Part shown: in pieces, positions 1 to 63,700 of the stretch
Position numbering within the stretch: position 1 is the first letter of the stretch
How the letters are laid out: every line of letters starts with the position of its first letter
Origin: Bathymodiolus brooksi
Taxonomy: Eukaryota; Mollusca; Bivalvia; Mytilida; Modiolidae
Direction of reading: 5' to 3'
Assembly: GCA_963680875.1 (NCBI GenBank)
Contig: OY804582.1
Location: 52,904,646 to 52,968,645 of the forward strand
Length of the DNA: 64,000 nucleotides
Position numbers and translations under genes: made by a program
Notes under the pieces: generated by a model
Told to the model about the DNA's origin: nothing
The model's database searches: none
What the model saw: only the letters and a program-made list of their open reading frames with translations

Positions 1-3000
1 GGAGTACAGACAATACAATGACCTAAAGAAGGAGTACAGACCATACAATGACCTAAAGAAGGAGTACAGACAATACAATGGCATAAAGAAGGACAGACAA
101 TACAATGACCTAAAGAAGGAGTACAGACAATACAATGACCTAAAGAAGGAGTACAGACAATACAATGACCTAAAGAAGGAGTACAGACAATACAATGACC
201 TAAAGAAGGAGTACAGACAATACAATGACCTAAAGAAGGACAGACAATACAATGGCCTAAAGAAGGAGTACAGACAATACAATGACCTAAAGAAGGAGTA
301 CAGACAATACAATGACCTAAAGAAGGAGTACAGACAATACAATGACCTAAAGAAGGAGTACAGACAATACAATGACCTAAAGAAGGAGTATAGACAATAC
401 AATGACCTAAAGAAGGAGTATAGACAATACAATGACCTAAAGAAGGAGTACAGACAATATAATGACCTAAAGAAGGAGTACAGACAATATAATGACCTAA
501 AGAAGGAGTATAGACAATACAATGACCTAAAGAAGGAGTACAGACAATACAATGACCTAAAGAAGGAGTACAGACAATACAATGACCTAAAGAAGGAGTA
601 CAGACAATATAATGACCTAAAGAAGGAGTATAGACAATACAATGACCTAAAGAAGGAGTACAGACAATACAATGACCTAAAGAAGGAGTATAGACAATAC
701 AATGACCTAAAGAAGGACAGACAATACAATGGCCTAAAGAAGGAGTACAGACAATACAATGACCTAAAGAAGGAGTACAGACAATACAATGACCTAAAGA
801 AGGAGTACAGACAATACAATGACCTAAAGAAGGAGTACAGACAATACAATGACCTAAAGAAGGAGTACAGACAATACAATGACCTAAAGAAGGAGTACAG
901 ACAATACAATGACCTAAAGAAGGAGTACAGACAATACAATGACCTAAAGAAGGAGTACAGACAATACAATGACCTAAAGAAGGAGTACAGACAATACAAT
1001 GACCTAAAGAAGGAGTACAGACAATACAATGGCCAAAAGAAGGAGTACAGACAATACAATGGCCTAAAGAAGGCGTACAGACAATACAATGACCTAAAGA
1101 AGGAGTACAGACAATACAATGACCTAAAGAAGGAGTACAGACAATACAATGACCTAAAGAAGGACAGACAATACAATGACCTAAAGAAGGAGTACAGACA
1201 ATACAATGACCTAAAGAAGGAGTACAGACAATACAATGACCTAAAGAAGGAGTACAGACAACACAATGACCTAAAGAAGGAGTACAGACAATACAATGAT
1301 CTAAAGAAGGAGTACAGACAACACAATGACCTAAATAAGGAGTACAGACAATACAATGACCTAAAGAAGGAGTACAGACAACACAATGACCTAAAGAAGG
1401 AGTACAGACAATACAATGACCTAAAGAAGGAGTACAGACAATACAATGACCTAAAGAAGGAGCACAGACAATACAATGACCTAAAGAAGGAGTACAGACA
1501 ATACAATGGCCTAAAGAAGGAGTACAGACAATACATTGGCCTAAAGAAGGAGTACAGACAATACAATGGCCTAAAGAAGGAGTACAGACAATACAATGAC
1601 CTAAAGAAGGAGTACAGACAATATAATGACCAAAAGAAGAAAGTACAGACAATACAATGACCTAAAGAAGGAGTACAGACAATACAATGACCTAAAGAAG
1701 GAGCACAGACAATACAATGACCTAAAGAAGGAGTACAGACAATACAATGGCCTAAAGAAGGAGTACAGACAATACAATGGCCTAAAGAAGGAGAACAGGC
1801 AATACAATGACCAAAAGAAGGAGTACAGACAATACAATGACCTAAAGAAGGAGTACAGACAATACAATGACCTAAAGAAGGAGTACAGACAATACAATGA
1901 CCTAAAGAAGGACAGACAATACAATGGCCTACAGAAGGAGTACAGACAATACAATGACCTAAAGAAGGAGTACAGACAATACAATGACCTAAAGAAGGAG
2001 TACAGACAATACAATGACCTAAAGAAGGAGTACAGACAATACAATGACCTAAAGAAGGAGTACAGACAATACAATGACCTAAAGAAGGAGTACAGACAAT
2101 ACAATGACCTAAAGAAGGAGTACAGACAATACAATGACCTAAAGAAGGAGTACAGACAATGCGATGACCTAAAGAAGGAGTACAGACAATACAATGACCT
2201 AAAGAAGGAGTACAGACAATACAATGACCTAAAGAAGGAGTACAGACAATACAATGACCTAAAGAAGGAGTACAGACAATACAATGACCTAAAGAAGGAG
2301 TACAGACAATGCGATGACCTAAAGAAGGAGTACAGACAATACAATGACCTAAAGAAGGAGTACAGACAATACAATGACCTAAAGAAGGAGTACAGACAAT
2401 ACAATGACCTAAAGAAGTACAGACAATACAATGGCCTAAAGAAGGAGTACAGACAATACAATGACTTAAAGAAGGAGTACAGACAATACAATGACCTAAA
2501 GAAGGAGTACAGACAATACAGTGACCTAAAGAAGGAGTACAGACAATACAATGACCTAAAGAAGGAGTACAGACAATACAATGGCCTAAAGAAGGAGTAC
2601 AGACAATACAATGGCCTAAAGAAGGAGAACAGGCAATACAATGACCAAAAGAAGGAGTACAGACAATACAATGACCTAAAGAAGGAGTACAGACAATATA
2701 ATGACCTAAAGAAGGACAGACAATACAATGGCCTAAAGAAGGAGTACAGACAATACAATGACCTAAAGAAGGAGTATAGACAATACAATGACCTAAAGAA
2801 GGAGTATAGACAATACAATGACCTAAAGAAGGAGTATAGACAATACAATGACCTAAAGAAGGAGTACATACAATACAATGACCTAAAGAAGGAGTACAGA
2901 CAATACAATGACCTAAAGAAGGAGTACAGACAATACAATGACCTAAAGAAGGAGTATAGACAATACAATGACCTAAAGAAGGAGTACAGACAATACAATG

Positions 3001-4758
3001 ACCTAAAGAAGGAGTACAGACAATACAATGACCTAAAGAAGGAGTATAGACAATACAATGACCTAAAGAAGGAGTACAGACAATACAATGACCTAAAGAA
3101 GGACAGACAATACAATGGCCTAAAGAAGGAGTACAGACAATACAATGACCTAAAGAAGGAGTACAGACAATACAATGACCTAAAGAAGGAGTACAGACAA
3201 TACAATGGCCTACAGAAGGAGTACAGACAATACAATGACCTAAAGAAGGAGTACAGACAATACAATGACCTAAAGAAGGAGTACAGACAATACAATGGCC
3301 TAAAGAAGGAGTACAGACAATACAATGGCCTAAAGAAGGAGTACAGACAATACAATGACCTAAAGAAGGAGTACAGACAATACAATGACCTAAAGAAGGA
3401 GTACAGACAATACAATGGCCTAAAGAAGGAGTACAGACAATACAATGGCCTAAAGAAGGAGTACAGACAATACAATGGCCTAAAGAAGGAGGACAGACAA
3501 TACAATGGCCTAAAGAAGGAGTATAGACAATACAATGACCTAAAGAAGGAGTACAGACAATACAATGGCCTAAAGAAGGAGTACAGACAATACAATGGCC
3601 TAAAGAAGGAGTACAGACAATACAATGGCCTAAAGAAGGAGTACAGACAATACAATGACCTAAAGAAGGAGTACAGACAATACAATGACCTAAAGAAGGA
3701 CAGACAATACAATGGCCTAAAGAAGGAGTACAGACAATACAATGACCTAAAGAAGGAGTACAGACAATACAATGACCTAAAGAAGGAGTACAGACAATAC
3801 AATGACCTAAAGAAGGAGTACAGACAATACAATGGCCTAAAGAAGGAGTACAGACAATACAATGACCTAAAGAAGGAGTACAGACAATACAATGACCTAA
3901 AGAAGGAGTACAGACAATACAATGACCTAAAGAAGGACAGACAATACAATGGCCTAAAGAAGGAGTACAGACAATACAATGACCTAAAGAAGGAGTACAG
4001 ACAATACAATGACCTAAAGAAGGAGTACAGACAATACAATGGCCTACAGAAGGAGTACAGACAATACAATGACCTAAAGAAGGAGTACAGACAATACAAT
4101 GACCTAAAGAAGGACAGACAATACAATGGCCTAAAGCAGGAGTACAGACAATACAATGGTCTAAAGAAGGAGTACAGACAATACAATGGTCTAAAGAAGG
4201 AGTACAGACAATACAATGACTAAAGAAGGAGTACAGACAATACAATGACCTAAAGAAGGACAGACAATACAATGGCCTACAGAAGGAGTACAGACAATAC
4301 AATGACCTACAGAAGGAGTACAGACAATACAATGGCCTAAAGAAGGAGTACAGACAATACAATGGCCTAAAGAAGGAGTACAGACAATACAATGACCTAA
4401 AGAAGGAGTACAGACAATACAATGACCTAAAGAAGGAGTACAGACAATACAATGACCTAAAGAAGGAGTACAGACAATACAATGGCCTAAAGAAGGAGTA
4501 CAGACAATACAATGACCTAAAGAAGGAGTACAGACAATACAATGACCTAAAGAAGGACAGACAATACAATGACCTAAAGAAGGAGTACAGACAATACAAT
4601 GACCTAAAGAAGGAGTACAGACAATACAATGGCCTACAGAAGGAGTACAGACAATACAATGACCTAAAGAAGGAGTATAGACAATACAATGACCTAAAGA
4701 AGGAGTACAGACAATACAATGACCTAAAGAAGGAGTACAGACAATACAATGACCTAAA
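1..4758. repeat. 30-bp tandem array (about 160 units), derived from a dispersed repeat
   Basis: A 30-bp unit of the form GGAGTACAGACAATACAATG plus ACCTAAAGAA repeats from the first base of the window. Common variants are ACC/GCC in the middle and 27-bp units that lack GTA. Both lengths are multiples of three, so both strands stay open for about 2.6 kb; these open frames are not genes. The array runs directly into sequence related to a dispersed repeat found elsewhere in the window, and single copies of that repeat (for example near 61,600) contain one copy of the unit. It continues off the left edge and lies upstream of the first visible EGF exon, presumably in an intron. Confidence 0.97.
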
Positions 4759-4870
4759 GAAAAAAGACAAACAGTGATCTACTAAACCACTACACAGAAA
4801 ACTAAAGATAGAACAACACAAACACCACAAAAATCATTGTGAACTTAGGTGTCATCACTTGACATATGTC
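4759..4870 (+). mobile_element. Remnant of the dispersed repeat that seeded the 30-bp array
   Basis: After the last 30-bp unit the sequence reads AAAAAAGACAAACAGTGATC, then a diverged ACTAAAGATAGAACAACAC and a GTGAACTTAGGTGTCATCAC stretch. The same order occurs at 41808-42004, 46405-46527 and 61547-61777 as (AAAAGGACAAACGATCTAC) ... (AAAACTAAAG) ... (GGTGCTCC..AAG..AAGCAGTTCCTGCTC). It is therefore the flank of the element in which the array arose. Confidence 0.7.
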
Positions 4871-7086: not shown

Positions 7087-7194
7087 AGATTGAAACTTGT
7101 GGAGGAAGACTTTGTGCTAAACATGCCCACTGTGTCAACAATCAGTGTACCTGTAAACCTGGCTACTATGGTCAGGGATGTACTGAATGTAAAG
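7087..7194 (+). CDS. EGF exon 2 (class B), 108 bp, with its tail expanded downstream
   Basis: The acceptor is TTTATAG and the donor GTTAGT. The domain starts IETCGGRLC and ends CKPGYYGQGCTECK, with seven cysteines; the extra one is in the YGQGC turn. The last 51 bp of the exon, its donor and 20 bp of intron form the unit of the tandem array that follows. Exon 2 lacks the aromatic residue found between Cys3 and Cys4 in later class B exons. Confidence 0.9.
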
Positions 7195-8670
7195 GTTAGT
7201 AGTTTACAGCTAAGTGTACCTGTAAACCTGGCTACTATGGTCAGAGATGTACTGAATGTAAAGGTTAGTAGTTTACAGCTAAGTGTACCTGTAAACCTGG
7301 CTACAATGGTCAGGGATGTACTGAATGTAAAGGTTAGTAGTTTACAGCTAAGTGTACCTGTAAACCTGGCTACTATGGTCAGGGATGTACTGAATGTAAA
7401 GGTTAGTAGTTTACAGCTAAGTGTACATGTAAACCTGGCTACTATGGTCAGTGATGTACTGAATGTAAAGGTTAGTAGTTTACAACTAAGTGTACCTGTA
7501 AACCTGGCTACTATGGTCAGGGATGTACTGAATGTAAAGGTTAGTAGTTTACAGCTAAGTGTACCTGTAAACCTGGCTACTATGGTCAGTGATGTACTGA
7601 ATGTAAAGGTTAGTAGTTTACAGCTAAGTGTACCTGTAAACCTGGCTACTATGGTCAAGGATGTACTGAATGTAAAGGTTAGTAGTTTACAGCTAAGTGT
7701 ACATGTAAACCTGGCTATTATGGTCAGTGATGTACTGAATGTAAAGGTTAGTAGTTTACAGCTAAGTGTACCTGTAAACCTGCCTACTATGGTTAGGGAT
7801 GTACTGAATGTAAAGGTTAGTAGTTTACAGCTAAGTGTACCTGTAAACCTGGCTACTATGGTCAGGGATGTACTGAATGCAAAGGTTAGTAGTTTACAGC
7901 TAAGTGTACATGTAAACCTGCCTACTATGGTTAGGGATGTACTGAATGTAAAGGTTAGTAGTTTACAGCTAAGTGTACCTGTAAACCTGGCTACTATGGT
8001 CAGGGATGTACTGAATGTAAGGGTTAGTAGTTTACAGCTAAGTGTACCTGTAAACCTGGCTATTATGGTCAGTGATGTACTGAATGTAAAGGTTAGTAGT
8101 TTACAGTTAAGTGTACATGTAAACCTGGCTACAATGGTCAGGGATGTACTGAATGTAAAGGTTAGTAGATTACAGCTAAGTGTACATGTAAACCTGGCTA
8201 CTATGGTCAGGGATGTGCTGAATGTAAAGGTTAGTAGATTACAGCTAAGTGTACCTGTAAACCTGGCTACTATGGTCAGGGATGTACTGAATGTAAAGGT
8301 CAGTAGATTACAGCTAACTGTACCTGTAAACCTGCCTACTATGGTCAGGGATGTACTGAATGCAAAGGTTAGTAGTTTACAGCTAAGTGTACATGTAAAC
8401 CTGCCTACTATGGTTAGGGATGTACTGAATGTAAAGGTTAGTAGTTTACAGCTAAGTGTACCTGTAAACCTGGCTACTATGGTCAGGGATGTACTGAATG
8501 TAAAGGTTAGTAGATTACAGCTAAGTGTACCTGTAAACCTGGCTACTATGGTCAGGGATGTACTGAATGTAAAGGTTAGTAGATTACAGCTAAGTGTACA
8601 TGTAAACCTGGCTACTATGGTCAGGGATGTACTGAATGTAAAGGTTAGTAGATTACAACTATTTGTACAT
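7195..8670 (+). repeat. 69-bp tandem array of exon 2 tail plus splice donor, 21 units
   Basis: Each unit is GTTAGTAGTTTACAG followed by 54 bp copying the exon 2 end (CTAAGTGTACCTGTAAACCT through GAATGTAAAG). From 7195 to the last donor at 8644 is exactly 21 x 69 bp. Each unit carries a GT donor, and most carry a TTTACAG acceptor-like site. In the EGF frame every unit reads into TAG just after the donor, and several units also contain TGA or TAG in the exon-like part. The array appears non-coding. The 527-residue open frame here is in another frame. Confidence 0.95.
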
Positions 8671-18574: not shown

Positions 18575-18682
18575 CACAAGATATATGTGGAGGGAAACAA
18601 TGTGCTCCTAATGCTAAATGTGTGAATTTCCAGTGTGTATGTAAAGATGGTTATGTAGGATCTGGATATTCTGAATGTGAGG
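18575..18682 (+). CDS. EGF exon 8 (class B), 108 bp, origin of the 46-bp donor array
   Basis: The acceptor is TTTTTTTGCAG and the donor GTATGT. Six cysteines; starts QDICGGKQCAPNAKC, has the class B loop CVNFQC, and ends KDGYVGSGYSECE. Inside the exon, the codons for the Cys4-Cys5 region read GTATGTAAAG, the same ten bases as the splice donor. The sequence from there to the exon end is the unit repeated downstream. Confidence 0.92.
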
Positions 18683-21600
18683 GTATGTAAAGATGGTTAT
18701 GTAGGATCTGGATATTCTGAATGTGAGGGTATGTAAAGATGGTTATGTAGGATCTAGATATTCTGAATGTGAGGGTATGTAAAGATGGTTATGTAGGATC
18801 TAGATATTCTGAATGTGAGGGTATGTAAAGATGGTTATGTAGGATCTGGATATTCTGAATGTGAGGGTATGTAAAGATGGTTATGTAGGATCTGGATATT
18901 CTGAATGTGAGGGTATGTAAAGATGGTTATGTAGGATCTAGATATTCTGAATGTGAGGGTATGTAAAGATGGTTATGTAGGATCTGGATATTCTGAATGT
19001 GAGGGTATGTAAAGATGGTTATGTAGGATCTGGATATTCTGAATGTGAGGGTATGTAAAGATGGTTATGTAGGATCTAGATATTCTGAATGTGAGGGTAT
19101 GTAAAGATGGTTATGTAGGATCTAGATATTCTGAATGTGAGGGTATGTAAAGATGGTTATGTAGGATCTAGATATTCTGAATGTGAGGGTATGTAAAGAT
19201 GGTTATGTAGGATCTAGATATTCTGAATGTGAGGGTATGTAAAGATGGTTATGTAGGATCTGGATATTCTGAATGTGAGGGTATGTAAAGATGGTTATGT
19301 AGGATCTGGATATTCTGAATGTGAGGGTATGTAAAGATGGTTATGTAGGATCTAGATATTCTGAATGTGAGGGTATGTAAAGATGGTTATGTAGGATCTA
19401 GATATTCTGAATGTGAGGGTATGTAAAGATGGTTATGTAGGATCTAGATATTCTGAATGTGAGGGTATGTAAAGATGGTTATGTAGGATCTAGATATTCT
19501 GAATGTGAGGGTATGTAAAGATGGTTATGTAGGATCTAGATATTCTGAATGTGAGGGTATGTAAAGATGGTTATGTAGGATCTGGATATTCTGAATGTGA
19601 GGGTATGTAAAGATGGTTATGTAGGATCTAGATATTCTGAATGTGAGGGTATGTAAAGATGGTTATGTAGGATCTAGATATTCTGAATGTGAGGGTATGT
19701 AAAGATGGTTATGTAGGATCTGGATATTCTGAATGTGAGGGTATGTAAAGATGGTTATGTAGGATCTAGATATTCTGAATGTGAGGGTATGTAAAGATGG
19801 TTATGTAGGATCTGGATATTCTGAATGTGAGGGTATGTAAAGATGGTTATGTAGGATCTAGATATTCTGAATGTGAGGGTATGTAAAGATGGTTATGTAG
19901 GATCTAGATATTCTGAATGTGAGGGTATGTAAAGATGGTTATGTAGGATCTGGATATTCTGAATGTGAGGGTATGTAAAGATGGTTATGTAGGATCTGGA
20001 TATTCTGAATGTGAGGGTATGTAAAGATGGTTATGTAGGATCTAGATATTCTGAATGTGAGGGTATGTAAAGATGGTTATGTAGGATCTAGATATTCTGA
20101 ATGTGAGGGTATGTAAAGATGGTTATGTAGGATCTGTATATTCTGAATGTGAGGGTATGTAAAGATGGTTATGTAGGATCTAGATATTCTGAATGTGAGG
20201 GTATGTAAAGATGGTTATGTAGGATCTAGATATTCTGAATGTGAGGGTATGTAAAGATGGTTATGTAGGATCTAGATATTCTGAATGTGAGGGTATGTAA
20301 AGATGGTTATGTAGGATCTAGATATTCTGAATGTGAGGGTATGTAAAGATGGTTATGTAGGATCTGGATATTCTGAATGTGAGGGTATGTAAAGATGGTT
20401 ATGTAGGATCTAGATATTCTGAATGTGAGGGTATGTAAAGATGGTTATGTAGGATCTAGATATTCTGAATGTGAGGGTATGTAAAGATGGTTATGTAGGA
20501 TCTGAATGTGAGGGTATGTAAAGATGGTTATGTAGGATCTGGATATTCTGAATGTGAGGGTATGTAAAGATGGTTATGTAGGATCTGTATATTCTGAATG
20601 TGAGGGTATGTAAAGATGGTTATGTAGGATCTAGATATTCTGAATGTGAGGGTATGTAAAGATGGTTATGTAGGATCTGGATATTCTGAATGTGAGGGTA
20701 TGTAAAGATGGTTATGTAGGATCTAGATATTCTGAATGTGAGGGTATGTAAAGATGGTTATGTAGGATCTAGATATTCTGAATGTGAGGGTATGTAAAGA
20801 TGGTTATGTAGGATCTAGATATTCTGAATGTGAGGGTATGTAAAGATGGTTATGTAGGATCTAGATATTCTGAATGTGAGGGTATGTAAAGATGGTTATG
20901 TAGGATCTGGATATTCTGAATGTGAGGGTATGTAAAGATGGTTATGTAGGATCTAGATATTCTGAATGTGAGGGTATGTAAAGATGGTTATGTAGGATCT
21001 AGATATTCTGAATGTGAGGGTATGTAAAGATGGTTATGTAGGATCTGGATATTCTGAATGTGAGGGTATGTAAAGATGGTTATGTAGGATCTGGATATTC
21101 TGAATGTGAGGGTATGTAAAGATGGTTATGTAGGATCTGTATATTCTGAATGTGAGGGTATGTAAAGATGGTTATGTAGGATCTAGATATTCTGAATGTG
21201 AGGGTATGTAAAGATGGTTATGTAGGATCTGGATATTCTGAATGTGAGGGTATGTAAAGATGGTTATGTAGGATCTAGATATTCTGAATGTGAGGGTATG
21301 TAAAGATGGTTATGTAGGATCTGAATGTGAGGGGATATGTAAAGATGGTTATGTAGGATCTGAATGTGAGGGTATGTAAAGATGGTTATGTAGGATCTGG
21401 ATATTCTGAATGTGAGGGTATGTAAAGATGGTTATGTAGGATCTGGATATTCTGAATGTGAGGGTATGTAAAGATGGTTATGTAGGATCTAGATATTCTG
21501 AATGTGAGGGTATGTAAAGATGGTTATGTAGGATCTGAATGTGAGGGTATGTAAAGATGGTTATGTAGGATCTGAATGTGAGGGTATGTAAAGATGGTTA

Positions 21601-23522
21601 TGTAGGATCTGGATATTCTGAATGTGAGGGTATGTAAAGATGGTTATGTAGGATCTAGATATTCTGAATGTGAGGGTATGTAAAGATTGTTATGTAGGAT
21701 CTAGATATTCTGAATGTGAGGGTATGTAAAGATGGTTATGTAGGATCTGGATATTCTGAATGTGAGGGTATGTAAAGATGGTTATGTAGGATCTAGATAT
21801 TCTGAATGTGAGGGTATGTAAAGATTGTTATGTAGGATCTGGATATTCTGAATGTGAGGGTATGTAAAGATGGTTATGTAGGATCTGGATATTCTGAATG
21901 TGAGGGTATGTAAAGATGGTTATGTAGGATCTGGATATTCTGAATGTGAGGGTATGTAAAGATGGTTATGTAGGATCTAGATATTCTGAATGTGAGGGTA
22001 TGTAAAGATGGTTATGTAGGATCTGGATATTCTGAATGTGAGGGTATGTAAAGATGGTTATGTAGGATCTAGATATTCTGAATGTGAGTGTATGTAAAGA
22101 TGGTTATGTAGGATCTAGATATTCTGAATGTGAGGGTATGTAAAGATGGTTATGTAGGATCTGGATATTCTGAATGTGAGGGTATGTAAAGATGGTTATG
22201 TAGGATCTGGATATTCTGAATGTGAGGGTATGTAAAGATGGTTATGTAGGATCTAGATATTCTGAATGTGAGGGTATGTAAAGATGGTTATGTAGGATCT
22301 GGATATTCTGAATGTGAGGGTATGTAAAGATGGTTATGTAGGATCTAGATATTCTGAATGTGAGTGTATGTAAAGATGGTTATGTAGGATCTAGATATTC
22401 TGAATGTGAGGGTATGTAAAGATGGTTATGTAGGATCTGGATATTCTGAATGTGAGGGTATGTAAAGATGGTTATGTAGGATCTAGATATTCTGAATGTG
22501 AGGGTATGTAAAGATGGTTATGTAGGATCTAGATATTCTGAATGTGAGGGTATGTAAAGATGGTTATGTAGGATCTGGATATTCTGAATGTGAGGGTATG
22601 TAAAGATGGTTATGTAGGATCTAGATATTCTGAATGTGAGGGTATGTAAAGATGGTTATGTAGGATCTAGATATTCTGAATGTGAGGGTATGTAAAGATT
22701 GTTATGTAGGATCTAGATATTCTGAATGTTAGGGTATGTAAAGATGGTTATGTAGGATCTGGATATTCTGAATGTGAGGGTATGTAAAGATGGTTATGTA
22801 GGATCTAGATATTCTGAATGTGAGGGTATGTAAAGATGGTTATGTAGGATCTGGATATTCTGAATGTGAGGGTATGTAAAGATGGTTATGTAGGATCTAG
22901 ATATTCTGAATGTGAGGGTATGTAAAGATGGTTATGTAGGATCTAGATATTCTGAATGTGAGGGTATGTAAAGATGGTTATGTAGGATCTGGATATTCTG
23001 AATGTGAGGGTATGTAAAGATGGTTATGTAGGATCTAGATATTCTGAATGTGAGGGTATGTAAAGATGGTTATGTAGGATCTGGATATTCTGAATGTGAG
23101 TGTATGTAAAGATGGTTATGTAGGATCTAGATATTCTGAATGTGAGGGTATGTAAAGATGGTTATGTAGGATCTGGATATTCTGAATGTGAGGGTATGTA
23201 AAGATGGTTATGTAGGATCTGTATATTCTGAATGTGAGGGTATGTAAAGATGGTTATGTAGGATCTAGATATTCTGAATGTGAGGGTATGTAAAGATGGT
23301 TATGTAGGATCTAGATATTCTGAATGTGAGGGTATGTAAAGATGGTTATGTAGGATCTAGATATTCTGAATGTGAGGGTATGTAAAGATGGTTATGTAGG
23401 ATCTAGATATTCTGAATGTGAGGGTATGTAAAGATGGTTATGTAGGATCTAGATATTCTGAATGTGAGGGTATGTAAAGATGGTTATGTAGGATCTGGAT
23501 ATTCTGAATGTAAGGGTATGTT
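18637..23522 (+). repeat. 46-bp tandem array of exon 8 tail plus splice donor, about 106 units
   Basis: The unit starts GTATGTAAAGATGGTTATGT and ends GAATGTGAGG. The first unit is the last 46 bp of exon 8. Two main variants alternate irregularly (GGATCTGGA or GGATCTAGA), and at least five units are 37 bp because nine bases are missing. From the exon 8 donor (18683) to the last one (23516) is 4,833 bp. Each unit offers the same GTATGT donor. If the first donor were not used, the frame would read GGT ATG TAA and stop. Because 46 is not a multiple of three there is no long open frame. Confidence 0.97.
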
Positions 23523-24429: not shown

Positions 24430-24531
24430 AATTATGCAATAACAAAAAATGTGCCAAATATGCTGTATGTGTAAATGGACAGTGTCAGTGCAGAGATGGT
24501 TTCCATGGCAACCCTATGACTAGTTGTACTC
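24430..24531 (+). CDS. EGF exon 9 (class A), 102 bp
   Basis: Flanked by ATTTCAG and GTAAGT. Six cysteines; starts LCNNKKCAKYAVC and ends RDGFHGNPMTSCT. One of four class A exons with N-P or K-P instead of D/N-G in the last turn (also exons 15, 29 and 33). Confidence 0.92.
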
Positions 24532-29983: not shown

Positions 29984-32862
29984 AATTGAGTGATTGGTTC
30001 TTGTTTAATGTCAAATGAGCAATTTTTCAGCCATATCCTGGTGAGAACAAGGTTACATTCAATGAGACGATGATGATGTCTTCTTTAAACTAGTCCCAAC
30101 ATGCTTGGTTGGATTTATTATTTTGCTGAAACAACAGTCTATGTGTAGGCATGTTACTTCACAGGGACACATTATCTTGATTCTGAGCCAACCAGTCTTT
30201 ACTTCTACTCCTTAATGCTGCATTCTTATAGTGGAGAAGCAGCAAACACTAGTTTTATAGTCTTTGGGTTTGACCTGCCCGGGGCTCGGACCCATGATCT
30301 ACTAGTTTTATAGTCTTTGGGTTCGACCTGCCCGGGGCTCGGACCCATGATCTACTAGTTTTATAGTCTTTGGGTTTGACCTGCCCGGGGTTCGGACCCA
30401 TGATCTACTAGTTTTATAGTCTTTGGGTTTGACCTGCCCGGGGCTCGGACCCATGATCTACTAGTTTTATAGTCTTTGGGTTTGACCTGCCCGGGGCTCG
30501 GACCCATGATCTACTAGTTTTATAGTCTTTGGGTTTGACCTGCCCGGGGCTCGGACCCATGATCTACTAGTTTTATAGTCTTTGTGTTCGACCTGCCCGG
30601 GGCTCGGACCCATGATCTACTAGTTTTATAGTCTTTGGGTTCGACCTGCCCTGGGCTTGGACCCATGATCTACTAGTTTTATAGTCTTTGTGTTCGACCT
30701 GCCCGGGGCTCAGACCCATGATCTAGTTTTATAGTCTTTGGGTTCGACCTGCCCGGGGCTTGGACCCATGATCTACTAGTTTTATAGTCTTTGGGTTCGA
30801 CCTGCCCGGGGCTTGGACCCATGATCTACTAGTTTTATAGTCTTTGGGTTCGACCTGCCCGGGGCTCGGACCCATAATCTACTAGTTTTATAGTCTTTGG
30901 GTTCGACCTGCCCTGGGCTTGGACCCATGATCTACTAGTTTTATAGTCTTTGTGTTCGACCTGCCCGGGGCTCAGACCCATGATCTACTAGTTTTATAGT
31001 CTTTGGGTTCGACCTGCCCGGGGCTCGGGCCCATGATCTACTAGTTTTATAGTCTTTGGGTTCGACCTGCTGGTGATTGGACCCATGATCTACCGCACTT
31101 GAGGTGACCGGGGCTGGGACCCATGATCTACTAGTTTTATGGTCTTTGGGTTCGACCTGCCTGGGGCTCGGACCCATGATCTACTAGTTTTATAGTCTTT
31201 GAGTTCGACCTGCCCGGGGTTCGGACCCATGATCTACTAGTTTTAGTCTTTTGGTTCGACCTGCCCGGGGCTCGGACCCATGATCTACTAGTTTTATAGT
31301 CTTTGAGTTCGACCTGCCCGGGGCTCAGACCCATGATCTACTAGTTTTATAGTCTTTGGGTTCGACCTGCCGGTGATTTGGACCCATGATCTACCGCACT
31401 TGAGGTGACCGGGGCTGGGACCCATGATCTACTAGTTTTATGGTCTTTGGGTTCGACCTGCCCGGGGCTCGGACCCATGATCTACCACACTTGAGGTGCC
31501 CGGGGCTGGGACCCATGATCTACTAGTTTTATAGTCTTTGGGTTCGACCTGCCTGGGGCTCGGACCCATGATCTACTAGTTTTATAATCTTTGGGTTCGA
31601 CCTGCCCAGACCCATGATCTACTAGTTTTATAATCTTTGGGTTCGACCTGCCCTGGGCTTGGACCCATGATCTACCACACTTGAGGTGCCCGGGGCTGGG
31701 ACCCATGATCTACTAGTTTTATAGTCTTTGGGTTCGACTTGCCCGGGGTTCGGACCCATGATCTACTAGTTTTATAGTCTTTGGGTTTGACCTGCCCGGG
31801 GCTGGGACCCATGATCTACTAGTTTTATAGTCTTTGGGTTCGACCTGTCCGGGGCTTGGACCCATGATCTACTAGTTTTATAGCCTTTGGGTTCGACCTG
31901 CCCTGGGCTTGGACCCATGATCTACTAGTTTTATAGTCTTTGGGTTCGACCTGCCCTGGGCTGGGACCCATGATCTACTAGTATTATAGTCTTTGGGTTC
32001 GACCTGCCCTGGGCTTGGACCCATGATCTACTAGTTTTATAGTCTTTGGGTTCGACCTGCCCGGGGTTCGGACCCATGATCTACTAGTATTATAGTCTTT
32101 GGGTTCGACTTGCCCGGGGTTTGGACCCATGATCTACTAGTTTTATAGTCTTTGGGTTCGACCTGCCCGGGGTTCGGACCCATGATCTACTAGTTTTATA
32201 GTCTTTGGGTTCGACCTGCCCGGGGCTCGGACCCATGATCTACTAGTATTATAGTCTTTGGGTTCGACCTGCCCTGGGCTCAGACCCATGATCTACTAGT
32301 ATTATAGTCTTTGGGTTCGACCTGCCCGGGGCTTGGACCCATGATCTACTAGTTTTATAGTCTTTGGGTTCGACCTGCCCGGGGCTCAGACCCATGATCT
32401 ACTAGTTTTAGTCTTTTGGTTCGACCTGCCCGGGGCTCGGACCCATGATCTACTAGTTTTATAGTCTTTGGGTTCGACCTGCCCTGGGCTTGGACCCATG
32501 ATCTACTAGTTTTATAGTCTTTGGGTTCGACCTGCCCGGGGCTGGGACCAATGATCTACTAGTTTTATAGTCTTTGAGTTCGACCTGCCCGGGGCTCGGA
32601 CCCATGATCTACTAGTTTTATAGTCTTTGGGTTCGACCTGCCCGGGGCTCGGACCCATGATCTACTAGTTTTATAGTCTTTGGGTTTGACCTGCCCGGGG
32701 TTCGGACCCATGATCTACTAGTATTATAGTCTTTGGGTTCGACCTGCCCTGGGCTTGGACCCATGATTTACTAGTTTTATAGTCTTTGGGTTCGACCTGC
32801 CCGGGGCTCGGACCCATTATCTACCGCACTTGAGGCAAGCATACTAATAATTACAGCACTAA
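29984..32862 (-). mobile_element. Family 2 SINE inflated by an internal 53-bp array
   Basis: The left part (29984-30252) is a normal family 2 copy, from GAGTGATTGGTTCTTGTTTA through GTCTTTGGGTTTGACCTG. The right end (TCTACCGCACTTGAGGCAAG to 32862) is the normal inverted tRNA-like head. Everything between is tandem copies of the segment around the B-box. Confidence 0.88.
30253..32828. repeat. 53-bp tandem array inside a SINE, about 48 units
   Basis: The unit joins CCCGGGGCTCGGACCCATGA, TCTACTAGTTTTATAGTC and TTTGGGTTCGACCTG. Variants include CCTGGG, TTCGG and CTTGG; some units extend into TCTACCGCACTTGAGGTG. Every unit contains a B-box-like sequence on each strand (GGGTTCGACC on plus, GGGTCCGAGCC on minus). 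Overlapping minus-strand frames are by-products. Confidence 0.95.
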
Positions 32863-43312: not shown

Positions 43313-44002
43313 AACAGATATCAAATTTAGTGTGCACGACATGTTTCTGGAATAACCTTCATCAGGTATGTTCGAGTCGAAAGATTGGAAAACCAAATAA
43401 TGTCAGTTTTTTGGAGCATGGAAACAAAAGGCCAAAATCTGCAAATGTCACCTATGTCTGAGGGAGGAGAACCTTAATTTTAATAATGATTACAATGATT
43501 ATACTCTCACTCACTCTGTTGTCTAATTTTATCTCAGTACAAACTCTATAGATAACAATCATTTTATTCTTCATGGAGCATATGTAGGATTAAATAGTGT
43601 CCTCCGTGAAATATTGTCCTCTGTTACAATTGTTTTCTATGATAATAAAGTCCGAGGACAGAATAAAGCGCAGAGGTGACTTCTTTTGGTCTGTTGGGGA
43701 TTTTTCATTTGAAAAAGATACAATCGGACACATTTTCACAGGACAATATTATGGCTTATACATATTGTTGATTTACACAAGTAAAAGAAGGTTTTTGTAA
43801 GTGTTTGGTATATGTAATAGACAAAGTTAGGCCAAACAGGCTGAGTGTTCCATCTACAAATGTAAATACATGTATAAAGATATCATTATTATGGAGATTG
43901 TTACACTTTTAATTATTTATTTACTGTATTTGGTATATATACAATGGACAAAGATTTATTTTTAAAACATGATAAGAAGTCTGAATACAAATGTGACAGT
44001 GG
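43313..44002. other. Intron segment, nothing recognised
   Basis: No exon, inverted repeat or family match found. Confidence 0.5.
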
Positions 44003-49163: not shown

Positions 49164-49263
49164 TTGGAATGTTTCAGATGGGTAAGATCAAGAGGGTAAA
49201 AACTCGAAATTACATCGACGATCATACTAAGATTGATCTTAAAACAGTATAAATTTAAATGAT

Positions 49264-49485
49264 GTTTATATGGAGCAGAAATTTGTCAGTGATGACATAC
49301 ATATTATTGTGTTTATAGATGTTTATTTAGGGAAGAAATTTGTCGGTCGCGACATACATATTATTGTGTTTATAGATGTTTATTTAGGGAAGAAATTTGT
49401 CGATCGCGACATACATATTATTGTGTTTATAGATGTTTATTTAGGGAAGAAATTTGTCGGTTGCGACATACATATTATTGTGTCA
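49264..49485. repeat. 57-bp tandem repeat, about 4 units, just upstream of exon 26
   Basis: GATGTTTATTTAGGGAAGAA, ATTTGTCGGTCGCGACATAC and ATATTATTGTGTTTATA make up the unit. 57 is a multiple of three, hence a short open frame. The last unit ends about 25 bp before the exon 26 acceptor. Confidence 0.93.
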
Positions 49486-49617: not shown

Positions 49618-50469
49618 GTAATATAATATATATGTAGAGGGACGGTTATCATAAGTGGGTCTGAAAGGGGTCTAAGTGTGATACGTGAATGGTCTTTTTT
49701 CGGAAGCGTGACACGTGAAAAACGGAAAATATAGACGTGAAAACGTGATCTCTTGTGCAACGTGATCCGTGAAAAATCATTATTCTGTACGTGAATGCGT
49801 GAAAATCTAACTTTCTTTTTAAGTGTGAAGACAAATCAAAGTCCGTATTCTGATGCTTCGTTGCGTCGGAACTTGATTTGTGACTCTACATTTCCTTTTA
49901 CTGCATCCCGTTTTTAGGATACTTTTTATGCTAGACTCTCTGACAAGTTAAAATTTAACCAGGGCAGCGATATTCTTAATCGGATATTGAATGAAGTTAT
50001 GAAGAGGGTAAATTCAAATCATGGTTGTAGAACTTAAAATATCCATTCAATGATGGAAGACGAAACACAAGCACGTCTGGTGTATTCATATGCTCAGGAA
50101 GAGTGAGCGATATCTACCACTCGTATATAGTCAACAACATTCAAATCGTAATATAATCAGTGAAATTAGTCACAATCTGACAGCTATGAGGAACTGCCAT
50201 ATAACTAAACAACAAAAACCAACTATAAAACTACACATACAGATGTCACAATAAGGTCTTTAACATATATAACTGACACCAAGAAGTCCCTGACAATAAA
50301 CGGTAATCAATCCAAACAGATAAACGTGAAACGTGAAATATCCAAATATCTAAGCGTGAAGCGTGATTTTGTCAAATTTTAAGCGTGATTGCATGATTGG
50401 TACCCCCCCCCCCCCCCCCTTTTAGGACCCCCTCATAAATGTAATGGTAATACAATATATATGTAGTTA
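49599..50469 (+). repeat. 45-bp duplication of exon 26 tail plus donor, second copy split by a MITE
   Basis: GGTTATCATAAATGTGATGG plus the donor and TAATATAATATATATGTAG (49599-49643) recurs: GGTTATCATAA at 49644, then the insert, then TCATAAATGTAATGGTAATA near 50433. The duplicated donor reads GTAATA again. Confidence 0.8.
49655..50432. mobile_element. Inverted-repeat insert in the duplicated exon 26 tail
   Basis: The left end GTGGGTCTGAAAGGGGTC and the right end CCCCCTTTTAGGACCCC are imperfect inverted repeats. TCATAA occurs on both sides, consistent with a target duplication. The interior is rich in ACGTGAAA-type words, with a long poly-C run near 50404. Confidence 0.75.
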
Positions 50470-56148: not shown

Positions 56149-56256
56149 TGAAGAAGTTTTGTGGTAATAAAACCTGTGCAGAAAATACTGAATGTGTTGA
56201 CTATAGATGTAAATGTAAGGCAGGATATACTGGTAATGGCTACAAAAAATGTGATG
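56149..56256 (+). CDS. EGF exon 30 (class B), 108 bp, with its tail expanded downstream
   Basis: Flanked by TGTTTTAG and GTAAGT. Six cysteines; starts KKFCGNKTCAENTEC, loop CVDYRC, ends KAGYTGNGYKKCD. The codons for C-K before KAGY read TGTAAG, so the exon itself contains GTAAG, as does its donor. Confidence 0.92.
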
Positions 56257-56578
56257 GTAAGTGTTCTTGTTGATACTGGTAATGGGTACACAAAATGTGA
56301 TGGTAAGTGTTCTTATTGATACTGGAAATGGGTACACAAAATGTGATGGTAAGTGTTCTTATTGATACTGGAAATGGGTACACAAAATGTGATGGTAAGT
56401 GTTCTTATTGATACTGGAAATGGGTACACAAAATGTGATGGTAAGTGTTCTTATTGATACTGGAAATGGGTACACAAAATGTGATGGTAAGTGTTCTTAT
56501 TGATACTGGAAATGGGTACAAAAAATGTGATGGTAAGTGTTCTTGTTGATACTGGAAATGGGTACAAAAAATGTGATG
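56257..56578 (+). repeat. 46-bp tandem array of exon 30 tail plus donor, 7 units
   Basis: Each unit is GTAAGTGTTCTTATTGATAC followed by TGGAAATGGGTACACAAAAT and GTGATG. Donors lie at 56257 and every 46 bp to 56533, with a final GTTAGT at 56579. Skipping the first donor in the EGF frame gives GGT AAG TGT TCT TGT TGA, a stop. Confidence 0.96.
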
Positions 56579-56794
56579 GTTAGTTTTCATATAGATTTCA
56601 GAACATGTTATAACAAATTTTGGACAATGTGTTTAAACGTAAAGCATGGTATGATATAGATACAGTAACTTTGGCTTATTGTTCATATGTATTTAATAAG
56701 AGTTTGATGAATGCTTTGTCCAGAATAGCTGACCTAGTTAATACAAAATGTTAAATGTGATAGGATCGTCAAATAAAGCAGATCCTACAGGAAT

Positions 56795-59533: not shown

Positions 59534-60605
59534 TACAGTAAAACCTGTCTAAGCCAAACCCCTTTGGGACTGAAGAATTTGTTCAGTTTAGACAGGTGTT
59601 TGGTTTACACAGGTTCAAATTACATAGACATTTAATAGATGGGACTGTAAAGTCTGTCTGGTTTAGGCAGGTTTTTGGTTTACTCAGGGTTCTGTTTAGA
59701 CAGATTTTTGGTTTACTCAAGGTTCTGTTTAGACAGGTTTTTGGTTTACTCAGGGTTCTGTTTAGACAGGTTTTTGGTTTACTCAGGGTTCTGTTTAGAC
59801 AGGTTTTTGGTTTACTCAGGGTTCTGTTTAGACAGGTTTTTGGTTTACTCAGGGTTCTGTTTAGGCATGTTTTTGGTTTACTCGGGGTTCTGTTTAGGCA
59901 TGTTTTTGGTTTACTCAGGGTTCTGTTTAGGCATGTTTTTGGTTTACTCAGAGTTCTGTTTAGGCAGGTTTTTGGTTTACTCAGGGTTCTGTTTAGGCAG
60001 GTTTTTGGTTTACTCAGGGTTCTGTTTAAGCAGGTTTTTGGTTTACTCAGGGTTCTGTTTAGACAGGTTTTTGGTGTACTCAGGGTTCTGTTTAGACAGG
60101 TTTTTGGTTTACTCAGGGTTCTGTTTAGACAGGTTTTTGGTTTACTCAGGGTTCTGTTTAGACAGGTTTTTGGTTTACTCAGGGTTCTGTTTAGGCAGGT
60201 TTTTGGTTTACTCAGGGTTCTGTTTAGACAGGTATTTGGTTTACTCAGGGTTCTGTTTAGACAGGTTTTTGGTTTACTCAGGGTTCTGTTTAGACAGGTT
60301 TTTGGTTTACTCAGGGTTCTGTTTAGGCAGGTTTTTGGTTTACTCAGGGTTCTGTTTAGACAGGTTTTTGGTTTACTCAGGGTTCTGTTTAGGCATGTTT
60401 TTGGTTTACCCAGGGTTCTGTTTAGGCAGGTTTTTGGTTTACTCAGGGTTCTGTTTAGGCATGTTTTTGGTTTACTCAGGGTTCTGTTTAGGCATGTTTT
60501 TGGTTTACCCAGGGTTCTGTTTAGGCATGTTTTTGGTTTACCCAGGGTTCTGTTTAGGCAGGTTTTTGGTTTACTCAGGGTTCTGTTTAGACAGGTTTCA
60601 CTGTA
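59534..60605. mobile_element. Inverted-repeat element inflated by a 33-bp array
   Basis: The left end TACAGTAAAACCTGTCTAAG is mirrored by the right end TTTAGACAGGTTTCACTGTA. TA lies at both outermost positions. Nearly all of the interior (59672-60595) is a tandem array whose unit resembles the element's own subterminal sequence (GTTTAGACAGGTGTTTGGTT at 59585). Confidence 0.88.
59672..60595. repeat. 33-bp tandem array, about 28 units
   Basis: Unit: GGGTTCTGTTTAGACAGG then TTTTTGGTTTACTCA. Variants: GGCAGG, GGCATG, CCCAGG. 33 is a multiple of three, so two overlapping plus-strand frames stay open for over 300 codons; neither is a gene. Confidence 0.96.
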
Positions 60606-61546: not shown

Positions 61547-61777
61547 CAAGAAGAGTTTGAAGATACCAAAGGGGTAATCAGAATCCATAAATTCGAAGAA
61601 GAACAGACAATACAATGGCCAAAAGAAAAAGTGCAAAAGGACAAACAACGATCTACAAAACATATGTATAAAACTAAAAATCGAGTAACATGAACCCCAC
61701 ACTAGAAACCGGGGGTGAACTCAGGTGCTCCGGAAGAGTAAGCAGTTCCTGCTCTCTATTGACACCTGTCGTGTTAA
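61547..61777 (+). mobile_element. Dispersed repeat, parent family of the 30-bp array (fullest copy)
   Basis: Contains GAACAGACAATACAATGGCC (one copy of the array unit), AAGGACAAACAACGATCTAC, GTAACATGAACCCCAC, GAACTCAGGTGCTCCGGAAG and AAGCAGTTCCTGCTC. The same landmark order links it to 4759, 41808 and 46405. Confidence 0.82.
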
Positions 61778-63153: not shown

Positions 63154-63261
63154 CTGAGGGATATTGTAAAGGTGTAAAATGTGCAGAGAACTCTGAATGT
63201 GTTGATGGTCGCTGTGTCTGTCGAGGAGGGCATGTAGGGGACGGACATCACAAATGTCAAC
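63154..63261 (+). CDS. EGF exon 35 (class B length, breaks the A/B alternation), 108 bp
   Basis: Flanked by TATTTTAG and GTAAGT. Six cysteines; starts EGYCKGVKCAENSEC and ends RGGHVGDGHHKCQ. By length and Cys position it is class B, although a class A exon was expected after exon 34; its loop CVDGRC is class-A-like. It follows the shortest intron (368 bp). Its tail is duplicated downstream. Confidence 0.9.
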
Positions 63262-63700
63262 GTAAGTAAAGTAGGGAGGGGAGGGAGCGGACATCGCAAA
63301 TGTCAGCGTACGTTAAGTAGCAATGAGGAGGGGGCATGTAGGGGACAGACATCACAAATGTCAACGTAAGTAAAGAAGCGAAGGGAGAGGGCATGTAGAG
63401 AATGAATATCACATGTCAGTATGAGTAAATATTTACTGCGAGACAACTGGAGGATAGACATGAAAAATGTCAATGTAAGTAAAGTAGTGAGAGGGGAGGT
63501 TGAGGGGGTGGGAGGATGTGCATTTAGGGAGGCATGTAGAGGATGAACGTCACATGTCAGTATGAGTAAATATTTACTGCGAGACAACTGGAGGAGGGAC
63601 ATCAGATTAATCAATGTGAGGTTTACAGAGGGGGACATTTTGGAGCACATCAAAAATATAAATGTGAGGTTTATAGAGAGGGACATGTTGGAGCACATCA
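63226..63700 (+). repeat. Irregular tandem copies of exon 35 tail plus donor
   Basis: The exon end GGGCATGTAGGGGACGGACA ... AAATGTCAACGTAAGTAAAG recurs diverged at about 63291 (CGGACATCGCAAATGTCAGC), 63333 (GGGGACAGACATCACAAATG, with CGTAAGTAAAG) and 63453 (GACATGAAAAATGTCAATGT, with GTAAGTAAAG). A second block (TGAGTAAATATTTACTGCGA) occurs at 63422 and 63562. Unit length is uneven. In the EGF frame, reading past the true donor gives CGT AAG TAA. Confidence 0.82.

What the first reader, a model, noticed from the sequence alone, without database searches (positions are those of the whole stretch)
18637..23522. About 106 consecutive copies of a working 5' splice site at exon 8
The last 46 bp of exon 8 plus its GTATGT donor is copied about 106 times. 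The exon itself contains GTATGTAAAG (part of the Cys4-Cys5 codons), which matches the donor, so each new donor is a copied piece of coding sequence. Using any donor but the first reads GGT ATG TAA, an immediate stop. The cell must therefore choose the first of about 106 near-identical donors, or the transcript is wrecked. The array could act as a U1 snRNP sink, a regulated poison region or a source of noisy splicing.
Basis: partly seen in the sequence, partly recalled or inferred. Interest (0 to 1): 0.88.

Follow-up and report, generated by a model that had tools for sequence, protein, structure and literature searches.

The report
Splice-donor minisatellite with 106 donors
In a gene built of EGF-like exons, likely from a bivalve, the last 46 bases of one exon stand 107 times in a row and give 106 near-identical donor-like splice motifs; only the first would keep the protein intact, so the array is likely a tolerated repeat of a kind already known from lancelets, here unusually long and beside three more in the same gene.

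Summary
The array is real in this sequence. Window 18637-23521 holds 107 copies of the last 46 bp of an EGF-like exon; their ends carry 106 intact GTATGT donor motifs and one ATATGT. 103 of them score as high as the gene's own median-type donors, against 14 non-genuine sites in 51.7 kb elsewhere. Using donor 2 reads GGT ATG TAA, a stop. The exon is one of 35 phase 1-1 EGF exons with no stop.

The donor enrichment is modest (P 0.004-0.06, depending on how arrays are counted).

The kind is known: 'mirages' of lancelet genes, reported not to disturb splicing (passages of PMC3087553, PMC3902484), and the human IFI6 minisatellite with several donors.

Best reading: a likely neutral minisatellite seeded by slippage between two GTATGT motifs, with only the first donor predicted to be used. 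A U1 sink or poison switch has no support here. No RNA, long reads or relative's DNA was available.

The parts
18575..18682 (+). Exon 8 of the window's EGF gene: 108 nt, phase 1-1, six cysteines
18637..18682 (+). First repeat unit = last 46 bp of exon 8 (the only copy predicted to be coding); it starts with the exonic GTATGTAAAG
18683..18688 (+). First donor GTATGT, the one predicted to be used (profile score 8.2)
18637..23521 (+). Array of 107 units with 106 intact GTATGT donor motifs; 4,839 bp of the 5,747-bp intron 8
23516..23521 (+). Last donor GTATGT, followed by unrelated intron (TAGTG); presumed ancestral donor
24430..24531 (+). Exon 9, whose acceptor would end intron 8
7144..8668 (+). 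Donor array of exon 2 (exon 7087-7194): 69-bp unit x 22 (51 nt exon end + 18 nt intron with GTTAGT), with a decayed tail to about 8740
56227..56596 (+). Donor array of exon 30 (exon 56149-56256): 46-bp unit x 8 (30 nt exon end + 16 nt intron with GTAAGT)
63235..63413 (+). Donor array of exon 35 (exon 63154-63261): degenerate repeat of about 58 bp with the exon end plus GTAAGT; further decayed copies to about 63700. The start at 63235 is my extension of the TRF call (63291)

Best explanation
The last 46 bp of this exon stand 107 times in tandem with 106 intact GTATGT donor motifs, in what is likely a neutral minisatellite of the lancelet 'mirage' kind, presumably seeded by slippage between a GTATGT in the exon and the GTATGT of the donor, with only the first donor predicted to be used. 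Shown: the copies, the donor motifs, the stop after donor 2, the intact exon and three further donor arrays in the gene. Inferred: the first duplication joined the exonic GTATGT to the ancestral donor 46 bp downstream, so that each new junction made a donor out of coding sequence; the array then grew by unequal exchange, perhaps partly in blocks of 12 units. Predicted and untested: exon definition picks the first donor, the one nearest the exon's own acceptor, so the other units leave with the intron and drift freely.
For: Exon 8 is the only 1 of 35 exons whose first six donor bases also occur inside the exon; the last donor, which borders unique intron, shares the same six bases. Copies beyond the first are free of coding constraint: array 2 units carry Gly-to-Arg or Val, Cys gains, one stop and 9-bp losses, and 7 of 22 copies in the exon-2 array have an in-frame stop, while the coding first copies are intact. 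All 35 exons keep reading frame, cysteines and GT-AG ends. Use of donor 2 gives a stop within 1-5 codons in each of the four exons. Array 2 has no acceptor-like site of genuine strength inside the repeat (best -2.66; lowest genuine acceptor 1.99), so it should not make pseudo-exons. Autocorrelation of unit types peaks at lag 12 (0.537; 0.0065 of 2000 shuffles reach it). Mirages with the same anatomy are reported with regular mRNA (passages).
Against: No transcript shows which donor is used. 103 donors score about alike and the first is only slightly more accessible in folding (0.063 against 0.039-0.051 for the next 14), so sequence alone does not explain the choice. In human IFI6 downstream repeat units are used as donors (PMC4526556 passage). 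The longest repeated run of unit types (8) is no longer than in shuffles, against growth by large blocks. The six-base test is partly circular for the first donor, itself a copy of the exon; it rests on the last donor. A clear matching motif was not found for the exon-30 array.
Confidence: 0.7

Rival explanations
1. Noisy splicing: a sizeable share of transcripts use donors 2-106, gain a stop and are lost to nonsense-mediated decay, so the array is a mild load that varies with copy number.
For: 103 donors in the array score 8.0 or more, like the first, with similar predicted accessibility. In IFI6 downstream units are used (PMC4526556 passage).
Against: Lancelet RT-PCR is said to show regular splicing despite such repeats (PMC3087553 passage). 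The first donor gives the shortest exon, which exon definition favours (established knowledge, no call).
Confidence: 0.13
2. Exon 8 is often skipped: the crowd of donors disturbs exon definition and the symmetric exon is left out in frame, dropping one EGF domain.
For: The exon is 108 nt with phase 1 at both ends, so skipping keeps the frame.
Against: The exon is intact, which suggests it is still used; this is weak evidence for a young array.
Confidence: 0.08
3. Regulated poison region: the cell switches between the first donor and later ones to turn the gene down.
For: Any later donor gives a quick stop.
Against: One donor would do; four arrays of different unit, age and length look like drift. 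No regulator site was looked for beyond Rfam, which gave 0 matches in the window.
Confidence: 0.04
4. U1 snRNP sink, or U1 protection against early polyadenylation along the intron.
For: 106 donor motifs per transcript; the array has no AATAAA or ATTAAA, against 157 on the + strand of the window.
Against: U1 is present at about a million copies in a human cell (recalled, no call), so one gene could hardly drain it. The lack of polyadenylation hexamers follows from repeating one 46-bp unit.
Confidence: 0.02
5. Assembly error inflates the copy number.
For: No reads were available; in lancelet one mirage was misassembled in the draft genome (PMC3087553 passage).
Against: The order of 12 unit types is irregular, and four arrays of the same kind stand in the gene, which a stutter of the assembler would not give. 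Even a few copies would leave the kind unchanged.
Confidence: 0.08

Closest known systems
Lancelet 'mirages' (Adh3, globin BflGb6 and BflGb9, TnC, PGBD5)
   Same: Minisatellite-like tandem repeats across exon-intron boundaries, carrying copied splice signals (passages of PMC3087553, and PMC3902484)
   Different: The counts I saw were 3 and 6 units (BflGb6 haplotypes), here 107; lancelet cases hit 5' and 3' boundaries, here four donors and no acceptor; here the main unit is purely exonic; here mRNA is untested
Human IFI6 (6-16, G1P3) minisatellite (Turri, Cuin, Porter 1995)
   Same: A minisatellite at an exon end whose units supply several splice donors (title seen as a citation)
   Different: In IFI6 downstream units are used and give protein isoforms (PMC4526556 passage); here unit 2 gives a stop. 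The original paper is not held
[quoted passage not shown]
   Same: Tandem duplication near a splice boundary in which exonic sequence supplies a donor (PMC4974935 abstract)
   Different: No new intron is predicted here: array 2 has no acceptor of genuine strength inside the repeat; an existing intron is lengthened instead

Membership tests
Mirage | Tandem repeat that spans an exon-intron boundary | tested here: met
   Array starts 46 bp inside exon 8 and runs into intron 8
Mirage | Minisatellite-sized unit (published 10-160 bp) | tested here: met
   Units of 46, 69, 46 and about 58 bp; published range from passage
Mirage | Copied splice signals | tested here: met
   106 GTATGT donor motifs, 103 of them scoring 8.0 or more
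Mirage | Regular mRNA despite the repeat | not testable with these tools
   No RNA data
Mirage | Length differences between haplotypes | not testable with these tools
   One sequence only
Mirage | Homogenised inside, edge units exempt | tested here: inconclusive
   Exon-30 array: units 3-6 identical, edge units differ. Array 2: rare types lie distally, 3 in the first half and 13 in the second
IFI6-type donor minisatellite | Downstream units used as donors in mRNA | not testable with these tools
   No RNA data
IFI6-type donor minisatellite | Downstream donors keep an open frame (isoforms) | tested here: not met
   Donor 2 gives a stop in exons 2, 8, 30 and 35
Intron gain by tandem duplication | New intron with its own acceptor between copies | tested here: not met
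   Array 2: best acceptor-like site within the repeat -2.66, lowest genuine 1.99. For the exon-2 array it is open: 20 acceptor-like sites at 5.1-5.9

The most novel reading that the evidence does not exclude
Donor sites of this gene, perhaps of this lineage, are seeds for minisatellites: exon tails with their donors are again and again turned into arrays that grow from the exon side, so that long introns are built out of coding sequence while splicing stays locked on the first donor.
Probability: 0.22. Interest if true: 0.72.

Novelty: new member of a known kind. Interest (0 to 1): 0.5.

Why it matters
If the first donor is used with high fidelity, this is a natural test of how a spliceosome picks one among 106 near-identical donors, with copies that differ almost only in position. 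Four such arrays of different ages in one gene would also make it testable whether donors are hot spots of minisatellite birth, and whether introns grow out of exon tails. If it is only a neutral repeat, it extends mirages from lancelets and human to what is likely a bivalve.

Tried and rejected
Own genome: the genome search 'own' did not complete in 5 of 5 tries, so a genome-wide count of donor arrays could not be made. Rfam: 0 matches in the window. U1 sink and poison switch: considered, no support. Folding as the reason for first-donor choice: only a slight difference. Block growth by long runs: longest repeated run of unit types is 8, as in shuffles, although lag 12 stands out. Microhomology as a general rule: 11 of 35 exons contain the first five bases of their donor and 1 of 35 the first six, and exon 30 gives no clear motif, so it is offered for exon 8 only. 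Link to the 108-nt exon class: 4 of 4 arrays lie in a class of 18 of 35, P 0.058, not significant; exon 18 (105 nt) was put in that class by position.

Rows and choices: the 31 TRF rows were merged by hand into 25 arrays. With TRF's own coordinates 3 of 25 arrays have a donor in the first unit (expected 0.92; P 0.050 by shifting, 0.061 by random placement). With the exon-35 array extended by me to 63235 it is 4 of 25 (P 0.008 and 0.011); for periods of 30 or more, 4 of 17 (P 0.004 and 0.008). The test was made after the arrays had been seen. Within 40 bp, one array (49261-49483) also lies near an acceptor. Acceptors of exons 22 and 34 were re-chosen; the protein was not re-translated by a call.

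Full report
Observation. Window 18637-23521 is a tandem array of period 46 with 97% matches. Cut at unit starts it has 107 units: 102 of 46 bp, 4 of 37 and 1 of 39, in 12 types; two types (A, 55 copies; B, 36 copies) differ at one base. 106 of the 107 unit ends are followed by GTATGT and one by ATATGT. The unit is the last 46 bp of exon 8, and the array makes up 4,839 of the 5,747 bp of intron 8.

Gene. A search of six frames for the EGF cysteine pattern gave 35 exons on the + strand, plus one spurious row on the - strand in another repeat. For each I required an acceptor and a donor in phase 1, and all 35 passed; lengths are multiples of 3 and the joined frame has 0 stops in 1,223 codons. Acceptors of exons 22 and 34 were then moved upstream by 6 bp, so that lengths alternate 102/108 with few exceptions. 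The first 491 residues match Pfam EGF families, best the teneurin-type EGF model PF25024 (E 9.3e-44) and also EGF_3. Of 208 proteins with E up to 0.001 (120 listed), the best are a VWFD-domain protein of the pearl oyster Pinctada imbricata (47% identity over 62%) and a 'Tenascin-X' of the scallop Mizuhopecten yessoensis (50% over 39%). The source is therefore likely a bivalve; the species is unknown.

Donor strength. A profile of the 31 donors outside the arrays gives the first array donor 8.2; 13 of the 31 score at or below that when left out of the profile. In array 2, 103 sites score 8.0 or more, the first donor included; outside the five masked stretches there are 14 such sites besides the genuine ones in 51,724 bp. 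The exonic GTATGT scores only 2.0 because TGT, not AGG, precedes it. No acceptor-like site of genuine strength lies inside the repeat; one at 18633 (7.8) lies in exon 8 just before it.

Consequence of choice. Reading on to donor 2 gives a stop at once in exon 8 (GGT ATG TAA) and exon 2 (GGT TAG), after two codons in exon 35 and after five in exon 30. Skipping exon 8 would keep the frame.

Not alone. Comparing each exon and its edges with its own introns gave matches for 7 of 35 exons: downstream copies of the exon end plus donor for exons 2 (22), 8 (106), 30 (7) and 35 (4); one single copy of the exon-26 donor end 0.8 kb downstream; one relic of the first part of exon 22 upstream; and a 13-bp match for exon 32 that looks like chance. 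The enrichment of arrays at donors is modest and post hoc: P 0.05-0.06 with TRF's coordinates, about 0.01 or less with the exon-35 array extended by me. 0 of 35 acceptors lie in an array; one lies within 40 bp of one.

Age and growth. In array 2 the 16 units of rarer types are all at position 33 or later (3 in the first half, 13 in the second; P 0.015), and in the exon-2 array units differ more from the consensus with distance from the exon (rho 0.51, P 0.014); one intronic control array shows no trend (rho -0.04, P 0.85). So the exon side looks youngest in two of the four arrays; the other two were not tested. Unit types show a period of 12, but no unusually long repeated run. The exon-35 array is strongly decayed, the exon-2 array has a decayed tail: the four look of different ages.

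Origin. The first six bases of the donor occur inside the exon in 1 of 35 exons, exon 8. The last donor, at the border to unique intron, shares GTATGT with the exon, which is what slippage between the two would leave. The exon-2 array shows a shorter shared TGTAC at its borders; the exon-30 array shows no clear motif.

Known kind. Lancelet genes hold tandem repeats across exon-intron boundaries called mirages; [quoted passage not shown] PMC3902484). The human IFI6 minisatellite 'provides multiple splice donor sites' (title, seen as a citation), and a passage says that two downstream units are used (PMC4526556). A human study saw repeats at exon-intron boundaries that may form new introns (PMC2812944 passages). 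Ten searches of an open-access library listed no mollusc case and none of this size; most subscription papers are not held there.

Verdict. A real, very long member of a known kind, in a gene that likely grew four of them. The choice of the first donor, its fidelity and the copy number in living animals are untested.

Noticed in passing
7144-8668: Each 69-bp unit of the exon-2 array carries an acceptor-like site (TTTACAG, 5.1-5.9; genuine range 1.99-15.66) 54 nt before its donor, so a unit could act as a phase 1-1 mini-exon coding half an EGF domain; 15 of 22 copies have no stop in the coding part.
   Followed up: partly
1-4761: 160 copies of a 30-bp unit, cut by the window edge, open on the + strand for 552 codons as EYRQYNDLKK repeats; similar words recur near 61600.
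   Followed up: no
5616-63261: EGF exon lengths alternate between about 102 and 108 nt through the gene, which suggests growth by doubling of a two-exon block.
   Followed up: partly
50433-50466: Single 34-bp copy (94%) of the exon-26 end plus donor, 0.8 kb downstream of that exon; perhaps the rest of a lost array.
   Followed up: partly
43800-43867: Relic of the first part of exon 22 (84% over 68 bp), 2.2 kb upstream of it.
   Followed up: partly
30248-32824: GC-rich array of a 53-bp unit, 49 copies, in intron 14.
   Followed up: no
49261-49483: 57-bp unit x 3.9 that ends 27 bp before the acceptor of exon 26.
   Followed up: no
59661-60598: 33-bp unit x 28 within intron 32, open in more than one frame; used as the intronic control.
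   Followed up: partly
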